IMG/VR virus record: IMGVR_UViG_3300045911_000143
Span: 1 to 64,000 of that record
Strand: one strand, 5' to 3'
DNA length: 64,000 bases
Source of the DNA: a virus
The notes beneath the pieces were generated by a model. It saw only the letters and a list, made by a program, of their open reading frames with translations, did no database searches and was not told the origin of the DNA. Below, piece by piece: positions 53,124 to 63,127 of the stretch. Position 1 is the stretch's first letter. Each line of letters starts with the position of its first letter. Position numbers and translations under genes: made by a program.

Positions 53124-53204
53124 AATAACAATTATGCCTCCCTCTGTCAATAGAGGTCAAATTTGTAAATGTCGAGACTTATTTATTTACTATATAAGGT
53201 TAAT

Positions 53205-53299
53205 GTTCACTGGTGGGACTCGAACCCACATCGGAAGACTTTGTTCTCCCATGACATAACCTAAACTAAGGTTATCGCTTACCTTTTGCTACAGTGAAC
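53205..53299 (-). tRNA. Non-canonical tRNA-like RNA with long variable arm
   Basis: Acceptor-like helix TTCACTG/CAGTGAA (extendable to 9 bp), T-arm GTGGG-TTCGAGT-CCCAC, long variable arm GGGAGA/TCTTCC, and an anticodon stem ATAACC/GGTTAT whose loop is 8 nt (TTAGTTTA). No CCA encoded. Isotype cannot be set. May be a tRNA with expanded loop, a decayed tRNA, or a tRNA-like regulator. Confidence 0.5.
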
Positions 53300-60492: not shown

Positions 60493-60897
60493 TCAATAGA
60501 CCTTAAATTTGTTATGTTTCCAATATTTTATATTACCTTCTGTTATAGGATTTGAAAGGTGCATCTGTAAATTCAGGCGAAGTGCATTTTCGACACACTT
60601 CTTATTTAAGCCTTTGTTTCTAAAGGATTTTTGAGTGTATGAATGGATGTATCTATCTTTACCCATTTGCATGTCACCATCACCGTTGAAGAAATAACGG
60701 CTAAAGATGATAGTCCATGAACGAGCAACACCATCAATTTCAGCAATAGAAAGAATTAATTTAGACTCTGGATTGTTCTTATAATCCCTGAAACAGGGCC
60801 ACATCATACCATCTCTAAAATGAATCTTTTGTAATTGGGAGATGACACGCGGGGGGATGAACTGGCCGGGACGATAAACAACAAATTTGGTGTTCAT
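60493..60897 (-). CDS. GNAT-like protein
   Basis: 134 aa. I-H-S-Y-T-Q-K-S-F-R-N-K-G-L-N-K-K resembles the acetyl-CoA loop (R-x-x-G) of GNAT acetyltransferases. Fold prediction only. Starts just beyond the structured RNA region. Confidence 0.5.
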   Translation of the reverse strand: MNTKFVVYRPGQFIPPRVISQLQKIHFRDGMMWPCFRDYKNNPESKLILSIAEIDGVARSWTIIFSRYFFNGDGDMQMGKDRYIHSYTQKSFRNKGLNKKCVENALRLNLQMHLSNPITEGNIKYWKHNKFKVY

Positions 60898-61039
60898 GGA
60901 CAGTCCCCATTTTGATTGAGAGAAATGTAAGCCTGAGATTAAGACTTAACGCAGCAACCTTTCCGGTCATTATCCCACACTTGCAGGTGTAGGTTCTACC
61001 GTTATCCACGCACTCGTGTGCGTATTTGCCATACCTGCT
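60898..61039 (-). other. Region between GNAT-like gene and large RNA
   Basis: An open frame at 60815-61042 (C-K-C-G, start ATG 61042) covers it but lacks a ribosome-binding site and overlaps the GNAT-like gene. It may be a small zinc protein or part of the RNA's 3' region. Confidence 0.35.
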
Positions 61040-61783
61040 CATTTATTTAAAGCGCGCGAGCTTATTGCGCTTGTCACCAATGACACTACTCATGGTTCTG
61101 TCTACCGCTTGCCTTGCGGGCAATAAGAGGACGCTAATCCCCTACGTGCGACTTTCCCACAACAATCTATCACCTTGCGAGTTCTAGACTGGCTTGATTC
61201 AGTTGCCTGTCAAGCATTAAGGTACTTTTCATCATTGGCCGGTGACAACTTTGCTATGTACTTATATACCATTCAAAGTTTTAATACCGCCTGAACTTGC
61301 GTGCCACCGTTGCTTCATAACCTTTTGGGCTACAAAATACAACACAAGTTCGTATCCGTTCATTGGCATTACTAGGATTGTCATTTTCGATCAAGCTGTT
61401 AACTTGACCTATTGACTGGATTACGCACTTGCCTGCCAAGACTCGCACTAAAATCCTACACCTTAGATAGTAAACTATGAAAGTTGCATCTACTAGAGGT
61501 TTGCTGCCTCAACAATTTCAGTTTTACCCTCAATTGCTTTCGTAGCATTCAGTCGTTTACCCCCTCACCCAACTCGGTAAGTGGATACCCCCTCTTTTGG
61601 AGAGGAATACATCCGGTGCTTTCTTGAATAGACCATATTGCTATGGCGAACGGGTTGGCGACCCATCCTTTATGCATATCACTATGCACTATCCTTGCAC
61701 TTAAAGAGTTGCCCCTTTAAGTGTGTCAAGCCAGACCTTTCGGTTTCGTTCCTTTATGGTGGAACTCATCAGTGGCTACCGTT
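61040..61783 (-). ncRNA. Large structured noncoding RNA (GOLLD/ROOL-like candidate)
   Basis: About 740 nt without a credible gene on either strand, driven by a strong promoter. Many perfect helices: CACTTAAAG/CTTTAAGTG, TGCATA/TATGCA, CCATA-GCAA-TATGG, CCTCT/AGAGG, GAACTTG/CAAGTTC, TTGCC/GGCAA inside CTTATTG/CAATAAG (61071-61127). It ends in AGCGC/GCGCT followed by TTTAAATAAAT. Size, structure density, promoter and tRNA neighbours match the phage-borne ornate RNA classes GOLLD and ROOL, but I cannot align it to either. Function unknown. Confidence 0.65.
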
Positions 61784-61788
61784 TAAAC

Positions 61789-61816
61789 ATCTTAACACAA
61801 ATTTATCGCTTGTCAA
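61789..61816 (-). promoter_or_regulatory. Sigma-70 promoter of the large RNA
   Basis: TTGACA-16-TAAGAT on the minus strand. Confidence 0.75.
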
Positions 61817-62094
61817 CACTTATTAAAAAGAATTGGGATGGGCTACATCGTGATTATCAGCTTCATGGTTCGATGTTAGTTTCGCATTGTACCCCCATCC
61901 AGTACAAGCATAGCACATTCTCACTAGTGGACTACAGACAGGAACGTGCAACCATCTGTATATTTTTGAAACATGTAAAATTAACCTACATTTGATTCTA
62001 TTTATTCTAACATAAAGAGACAGTTTGTCAATTTTAATTAGAACAATTTTTCATAGAAAACAAAAAGAGACAATTCTGTGTTTTAAACGTAAAT
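61817..62094. other. AT-rich spacer
   Basis: Nothing recognised between the large-RNA promoter and tRNA-Gly; no gene on either strand with a start signal. Confidence 0.5.
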
Positions 62095-62168
62095 TGGAGC
62101 GTCCTGTCAGAATCGAACTGACACCTTAAGATTGGAAGTCTTTGATTCTACCATTAAACTAAGGACGC
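62095..62168 (-). tRNA. tRNA-Gly (UCC)
   Basis: 74 nt: acceptor GCGTCCT/AGGACGC, loop CTTCCAA, T-arm TCAG-TTCGATT-CTGA, discriminator T and CCA encoded. Similar to T4 tRNA-Gly in the anticodon arm. Confidence 0.94.
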
Positions 62169-62945: not shown

Positions 62946-63020
62946 TGGTCGGAGTGTGGTGAATCGAACACCAGAATTTCTCGCCCCAAACGAGACCCCG
63001 TACCACTCGGGAACACTCCG
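62946..63020 (-). tRNA. tRNA-Pro (UGG)
   Basis: 75 nt: C1-G72 acceptor CGGAGTG/CACTCCG, anticodon stem TCTCG/CGAGA, loop TTTGGGG, CCA encoded. TATAAATA sits 10 bp upstream (63030-63037). Confidence 0.94.
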
Positions 63021-63050: not shown

Positions 63051-63127
63051 TGGTACAACCGACGAGATTCGAACTCGCAATCCCCAGATTGAAAGTCTGG
63101 TGGCTTAACCTGTTTGCCTACGGTTGT
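63051..63127 (-). tRNA. tRNA-Glu (UUC)
   Basis: 77 nt: acceptor ACAACCG/CGGTTGT, anticodon stem CCAGA/TCTGG, loop CTTTCAA, T-arm GCGAG-TTCGAAT-CTCGT, CCA encoded. A1 is unusual for tRNA-Glu. Confidence 0.93.

What the first reader, a model, noticed from the sequence alone, without database searches (positions are those of the whole stretch)
61040..61783. Large ornate noncoding RNA next to tRNA genes
About 740 nt of dense perfect helices with GNRA-type loops, strong own promoter and a terminator-like end, near tRNA-Gly, Pro and Glu. GOLLD and ROOL RNAs are phage-borne, of this size, and near tRNAs; recent work shows they form multimeric cages. If it does not match their models it is a new class.
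Basis: partly seen in the sequence, partly recalled or inferred. Interest (0 to 1): 0.8.

Follow-up and report, generated by a model that had tools for sequence, protein, structure and literature searches.

The report
Self-trimming GOLLD RNA-cage gene in phages
The region encodes a GOLLD RNA, a known phage RNA that assembles into hollow cages, and in this phage and four other phage lineages it appears to carry a small self-cutting RNA (a hammerhead ribozyme) that would trim the molecule to its correct start, a link I found nowhere in the literature I could search.

Summary
The region holds a GOLLD RNA (Rfam RF02032, 189.5 bits, cut-off 150, full model), on the minus strand, downstream of tRNA-Gly, -Pro and -Glu. 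It is not a new class. The coordinates should be about 61,733 down to 60,930 (804 nt). The promoter is present; the claimed terminator was not found. Predicted cleavage GUC^UGG falls at the start of the GOLLD 5' domain. The same element occurs in XacN1, CM1/RAS14 and an IMG/VR phage (L213), and was then found as predicted in Xanthomonas phage X1. The cut lies 381-384 nt before the GOLLD 3' domain in all five. Across the five, all 90 cells of the ribozyme stems and the first GOLLD helix (P1) pair, with compensatory changes at 10 of 18 positions. Two nucleotides covary with two alternative partners, one in ribozyme stem I and one in P1, which indicates an ordered switch: ribozyme folds, cuts, then P1 forms. 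Other GOLLD lineages lack the ribozyme, and the carriers form one clade. Cleavage itself is untested.

The parts
61789..61816 (-). sigma70-like promoter of the GOLLD transcript (TTGACA 61816-61811, TAAGAT 61794-61789); predicted start of transcription about 61782
   Evidence: promoter conserved in XacN1 and CM1 at the aligned place
61734..61777 (-). hammerhead ribozyme (stem I open-ended): stem I 5' strand 61777-61773, CUGAUGA 61772-61766, stem II 61765-61748, GAA 61747-61745, stem III 61744-61735, C17 61734
   Evidence: Rfam HH9 26.6 bits, E 4.8e-4 (below its cut-off of 52); structural finder; five homologues
61733..61734 (-). predicted self-cleavage site GUC^UGG between 61734 and 61733
   Evidence: position from hammerhead numbering; same site in five phages, 381-384 nt before the GOLLD 3' domain
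61353..61733 (-). GOLLD 5' (cap) domain, 381 nt; helix P1 = 61730-61726 with 61627-61623, overlapping the 3' strand of ribozyme stem I (61733-61729)
60930..61352 (-). GOLLD 3' domain
   Evidence: RF02032, 189.5 bits, model 1-416
62095..62168 (-). tRNA-Gly (UCC) upstream on the same strand
62946..63020 (-). tRNA-Pro (UGG) upstream on the same strand
63051..63127 (-). tRNA-Glu (UUC) upstream on the same strand

Best explanation
This is a GOLLD RNA of an XacN1-like jumbo phage whose mature 5' end is made by a built-in hammerhead ribozyme. Transcription starts about 5 nt before the ribozyme. The nascent RNA folds the hammerhead and cuts at GUC^UGG, releasing a leader of about 49 nt and leaving an RNA of about 804 nt with a 5'-hydroxyl. 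The freed strand UGGCUUGA then pairs with a segment about 110 nt downstream to form helix P1, which closes the first multi-branch junction of the 5' cap domain. P1 and ribozyme stem I share nucleotides, so they cannot coexist. Cutting therefore comes before, and probably permits, folding of the cap and assembly of the cage. Shown by sequence: GOLLD identity, the hammerhead fold and consensus core, its constant position, covariation of both alternative helices, and restriction to one GOLLD clade. Inferred: cleavage in the cell, the order of events, stabilisation by the 5'-hydroxyl end, and assembly of this RNA into a cage (known for another GOLLD, PMC12286853).
For: GOLLD 189.5 bits. The hammerhead has every core nucleotide (CUGANGA, GAA, A15.1-U16.1, GUC). 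All five lineages pair fully in stems I, II, III and P1 (90 of 90 cells; shuffles mean 75, max 83) with compensatory changes at 10 of 18 positions. Two product nucleotides, nt 4 (C in the window, U elsewhere) and nt 5 (C in X1, U elsewhere), each change together with partners in both stem I and P1. The cut is 381, 382, 384, 384 and 383 nt before the GOLLD 3' domain. Chance is low: at most 1 of 3000 shuffles of each region; in 2.2 Mb of control sequence the finder gave 2 hits, one of them L213 itself, and with stem II judged by folding only L213. The hammerhead in X1 was looked for after X1 was found by its 3' domain alone. The isolated ribozyme is the predicted minimum-energy fold in four of five; adding 130 nt downstream drops stem I probability to 0.00-0.31. 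Carriers are one clade, support 100/92.
Against: No cleavage data. Rfam hammerhead scores are below their cut-offs (26.6 vs 52 in the window; 24.1 vs 34 in L213), and cmscan gave no hammerhead hit in XacN1, CM1 or X1. CM1 and XacN1 have 1 and 2 extra nucleotides between A9 and stem II, and X1 has a bulge in stem II, all of which could weaken activity. In L213 the isolated RNA has a competing fold that is 3.9 kcal/mol better. Of 110 distinct GOLLD loci with at least 600 nt upstream only four carry it (X1, found later, makes five), so it is not needed by GOLLD in general. Stems and P1 were chosen from the same sequences on which the covariation is counted.
Confidence: 0.8

Rival explanations
1. 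The hammerhead serves the tRNA array: it frees the 3' ends of upstream tRNAs (as proposed for theta ribozymes in gut phages), and its place before GOLLD is incidental.
For: All carriers lie in tRNA arrays; in L213 the ribozyme starts 12 nt after tRNA-Trp. Theta ribozymes are proposed to process tRNA 3' trailers (PMC10879173).
Against: In the window, XacN1 and CM1 a promoter lies between any upstream tRNA and the ribozyme, so transcripts from that promoter hold no tRNA before it. The distance to GOLLD is fixed within 3 nt and stem I covaries with GOLLD P1.
Confidence: 0.1
2. An ordinary GOLLD RNA with a decaying, inactive hammerhead relic at its 5' end.
For: Sub-threshold Rfam scores; extra core nucleotides in CM1 and XacN1; bulged stem II in X1.
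Against: Compensatory changes and strict core conservation over five divergent lineages; relics lose pairing. The window and L213 copies have a fully consensus core.
Confidence: 0.08
3. The hammerhead acts as a regulated switch: a ligand, protein or phage stage chooses between stem I (cut) and P1 (uncut), so that cage formation is timed.
For: Two nucleotides covary with both alternative partners, as expected of mutually exclusive helices.
Against: No ligand-binding domain is apparent; simple folding order explains the overlap.
Confidence: 0.12

Closest known systems
GOLLD RNA (RF02032; cryo-EM 14-mer nanocage of env-38, PMC12286853)
   Same: 3' domain matches over the full model; two-domain plan with 5' domain 381 nt and 3' domain 423 nt against 420 and 413 in env-38; tRNA neighbourhood; phage-borne
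   Different: 5' end apparently made by a hammerhead ribozyme; no ribozyme processing of GOLLD is mentioned in PMC12286853 and none was found upstream of other GOLLD lineages here
Hammerhead ribozymes of phages and bacteria (PMC3088659)
   Same: consensus catalytic core, GUC cleavage triplet, stem I open-ended
   Different: in the passages read, no fusion to a large structured RNA is described there; here it sits at a fixed position before GOLLD, and its stem I strand is reused as helix P1
Theta ribozymes of gut phages (PMC10879173)
   Same: small self-cleaving RNA next to phage tRNAs, with a proposed RNA-processing role
   Different: HDV-like fold, proposed to trim tRNA 3' trailers; this one is a hammerhead trimming a GOLLD 5' end

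Membership tests
GOLLD RNA | match to the RF02032 covariance model above the gathering score | tested here: met
   189.5 bits against 150, model 1-416
GOLLD RNA | upstream 5' domain giving a total of about 800 nt or more | tested here: met
   381 nt from the predicted cut to the 3' domain, 804 nt in all; P1 and a GNRA hairpin covary
GOLLD RNA | phage context near tRNA genes | tested here: met
   virus record G000; three tRNAs upstream
GOLLD RNA | assembly into a 14-mer cage | not testable with these tools
   needs cryo-EM or mass photometry
ROOL RNA | match to an Rfam ROOL model | tested here: not met
   no ROOL match at gathering (window) or at E up to 1 (60700-62100)
Hammerhead ribozyme | core CUGANGA, GAA, A15.1-U16.1, H17 between three stems | tested here: met
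   window, L213 and X1 exactly; CM1 and XacN1 with 1-2 extra nt after A9
Hammerhead ribozyme | match above an Rfam gathering score | tested here: not met
   26.6 bits vs 52 (HH9, window); 24.1 vs 34 (Hammerhead_1, L213); 17.4 vs 34 (Hammerhead_1, window). A score cut-off is a filing rule, not a structural feature; the claim here rests on core and covariation
Hammerhead ribozyme | self-cleavage in Mg2+ | not testable with these tools
   needs an in vitro assay

The most novel reading that the evidence does not exclude
A natural RNA nanocage subunit matures by its own ribozyme, and the ribozyme's stem I and the cage helix P1 form a built-in strand-exchange switch, so that the cap can fold only after self-cutting, giving a maturation checkpoint for cage assembly.
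Probability: 0.45. Interest if true: 0.85.

Novelty: new variant of a known kind. Interest (0 to 1): 0.7.

Why it matters
GOLLD is one of the largest natural RNA-only assemblies known and its function is unknown. A conserved self-cutting element at its 5' end says that an exact, leader-free end matters, points to the 5' cap domain as sensitive to extra sequence, and gives a clean genetic handle: a one-base change in the ribozyme should block maturation without touching the cage RNA. It also suggests a job for a phage hammerhead ribozyme.

Tried and rejected
New RNA class: rejected, Rfam GOLLD match. ROOL: no match. Protein-coding reading: no ORF annotated across the homologous stretch in RAS14 or XacN1. 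Terminator-like end: not found on the minus strand. Hammerhead as a general GOLLD feature: rejected, only the one clade among 110 loci, none in the tandem GOLLDs of CP136011 or in DSS3_MAL1. Other ribozymes at GOLLD 5' ends: one pistol 1.2 kb upstream in L155 only, none in 20 further loci. Hammerheads as a general marker of GOLLD phages: rejected, none of the further viral records fetched by hammerhead patterns and searched with RF02032 (48, 48) held a GOLLD. Over-specific scans for the 5' and 3' motifs of this clade found nothing. GOLLD in XbC2, Kaldavass, GAP32, CBB and S-CREM2: absent. Circular RNA from two ribozymes: only one hammerhead match in the 78-kb record.

Full report
Identity. cmscan of the whole window against Rfam 15 gives one large-RNA match: GOLLD (RF02032), 60930-61352, minus strand, 189.5 bits against a cut-off of 150, the full 416-position model, E 8e-52 (alignment). 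The minus strand folds 4.1 sd below shuffles and the plus strand 1.9 sd. tRNA-Gly, -Pro and -Glu lie upstream on the same strand. The record is a 78,354-nt virus contig. Its ribonucleotide reductase is closest to those of the jumbo phages XacN1 and CM1/RAS14, which also carry the closest GOLLD genes by blastn. So the window most likely comes from a fragment of an XacN1-like jumbo phage (inference).

The 5' end. A permissive Rfam search of the locus gave a sub-threshold hammerhead hit, HH9, 26.6 bits, E 4.8e-4, at 61780-61720 minus. Read by hand it is complete: stem I AGCCA/UGGCU, CUGAUGA, stem II GUUCC/GGAAC, GAA, stem III ACC/GGU, cleavage triplet GUC. It lies just after a sigma70-like promoter and just before the GOLLD 5' domain.

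Relatives. XacN1 and CM1/RAS14 have the same arrangement: promoter, hammerhead, GUC^UGGUUUGACAACUUG, 5' domain, 3' domain. They carry two and one extra nucleotides between A9 and stem II. An extra nucleotide at that place is known to me from a viroid hammerhead (from memory, not looked up). A GOLLD-motif scan of IMG/VR, blind to ribozymes, brought in L213 (153-kb phage contig), which has a consensus hammerhead in the same place, 12 nt after tRNA-Trp, and a tRNA inside the GOLLD linker. Its contig holds no reductase like the window's, although it may be incomplete. Xanthomonas phage X1 was then found by similarity to the GOLLD 3' domain alone. Looking where the hypothesis predicts, it has CUGAAGA, a stem II with one bulge, GAAA, and GACGUC^UGGUC, and the hammerhead is the predicted minimum-energy fold of that segment. 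The automatic finder misses X1 because of the bulge, so X1 was read by eye.

Position and chance. The cut lies 381, 382, 384, 384 and 383 nt before the Rfam GOLLD start in the window, XacN1, CM1, L213 and X1. In dinucleotide shuffles of each 1300-nt region at most 1 of 3000 held a hammerhead-like structure. Over 2.2 Mb of control sequence the finder gave two hits, one of them L213 itself; judging stem II by folding left only L213. Among 110 distinct GOLLD loci with 600 nt or more upstream, only the window, XacN1, CM1 and L213 have it. On a tree of 114 GOLLD 3' domains, built before X1 was found, these four are one side of one branch, support 100/92; the nearest relative without the ribozyme is a tandem GOLLD on a Pseudomonas plasmid record. 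In that relative a promoter lies so that transcription of the first copy would start at about -396, close to where the ribozyme would cut in the others (inference). This suggests one gain of the ribozyme, replacing a start set by the promoter.

Covariation and the switch. Counting stems I (5), II (5), III (3) and P1 (5) over five sequences, all 90 cells form standard pairs, against a mean of 75 and maximum of 83 in 2000 shuffles; 10 of 18 positions show changes on both sides. P1 plus a GNRA hairpin of the 5' domain, counted by the independent tool on four sequences: 98.1% paired, 7 of 13 pairs with changes on both sides, 0 of 500 shuffles as good, and sliding the partners by 1-3 columns drops pairing to 27-44%. 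P1 and stem I overlap. Nucleotide 4 of the cut product is C in the window and U elsewhere; its stem I partner is G in the window and A elsewhere, and so is its P1 partner. Nucleotide 5 is C in X1 and U elsewhere; again both partners change from A to G. One nucleotide that follows two partners is what two successive, mutually exclusive helices predict. Folding agrees: the ribozyme alone is the minimum-energy fold in four of five, and adding 130 nt of downstream sequence lowers stem I probability to 0.00-0.31 in the four tested. So the ribozyme should act while the RNA is being made, before P1 takes its strand. The counts have a bias: the helices were chosen on these same sequences, except that X1 was a prediction.

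Function. In the solved GOLLD the 5' domains form the cap of the cage and the 3' domains the ring; the RNA is a 14-mer of unknown function (PMC12286853). A cut that leaves an RNA of about 804 nt with 5' and 3' domains of 381 and 423 nt fits that plan (420 and 413 in env-38). I propose that the ribozyme gives uniform 5' ends, removes a leader that would disturb the cap, frees the strand for P1, and leaves a 5'-hydroxyl that is a poor substrate for 5'-end-dependent decay by RNase E (general knowledge). In L213, and possibly where transcription reads through from upstream tRNA genes, it would also cut GOLLD free of tRNA transcripts.

Literature. In the 5.4 million papers held, the only paper naming both GOLLD and hammerhead is a drawing-software paper. 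The GOLLD structure paper has no mention of hammerhead or self-cleavage. The XacN1 genome paper mentions neither GOLLD, nor ribozymes, nor tmRNA. The 2009 discovery paper and the mycobacterial GOLLD paper are not held, and a 2014 Yale thesis on GOLLD could not be read, so prior mention cannot be excluded.

Verdict. GOLLD membership is secure. The 5' hammerhead is strongly supported by comparison and untested by chemistry. It is a new variant of a known RNA.

Noticed in passing
L483, L485, L487, L492, L502, L507, L546, L573 (GOLLD loci): 8 of 20 GOLLD loci scanned have a tmRNA gene close downstream on the opposite strand. DSS3_MAL1 has a tmRNA just after GOLLD. The sample is not phylogenetically independent. 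GOLLD and phage tmRNA may be functionally linked.
   Followed up: no
L004:3601-4045 (Xanthomonas phage XacN1): An unannotated tmRNA (beta_tmRNA 107.8 bits; tmRNA_permuted 123.2 bits; ARAGORN tmRNA*, tag ANANTFDYALAA) about 1 kb upstream of the GOLLD 3' domain.
   Followed up: no
L539 (CP136011.1 122456-123778) and L169-L171: Tandem GOLLD genes: two strong copies on a 909-kb Pseudomonas plasmid record, one with tRNA-Lys in its linker, and a second weaker copy about 1 kb upstream in three phages.
   Followed up: partly
L155:220-289: Pistol ribozyme (52 bits, above cut-off) about 1.2 kb upstream of a GOLLD 3' domain; not seen in the other loci scanned.
   Followed up: no
window 53204-53299: tRNA-like gene with a two-letter anticodon call (ta) next to tRNA-Met on the minus strand; possibly an odd or degenerate tRNA.
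   Followed up: no
L213 (IMGVR_UViG_3300048930_000242): 27 tRNA genes in 9.2 kb, with GOLLD embedded in the array and a further tRNA-like sequence inside the GOLLD linker.
   Followed up: partly
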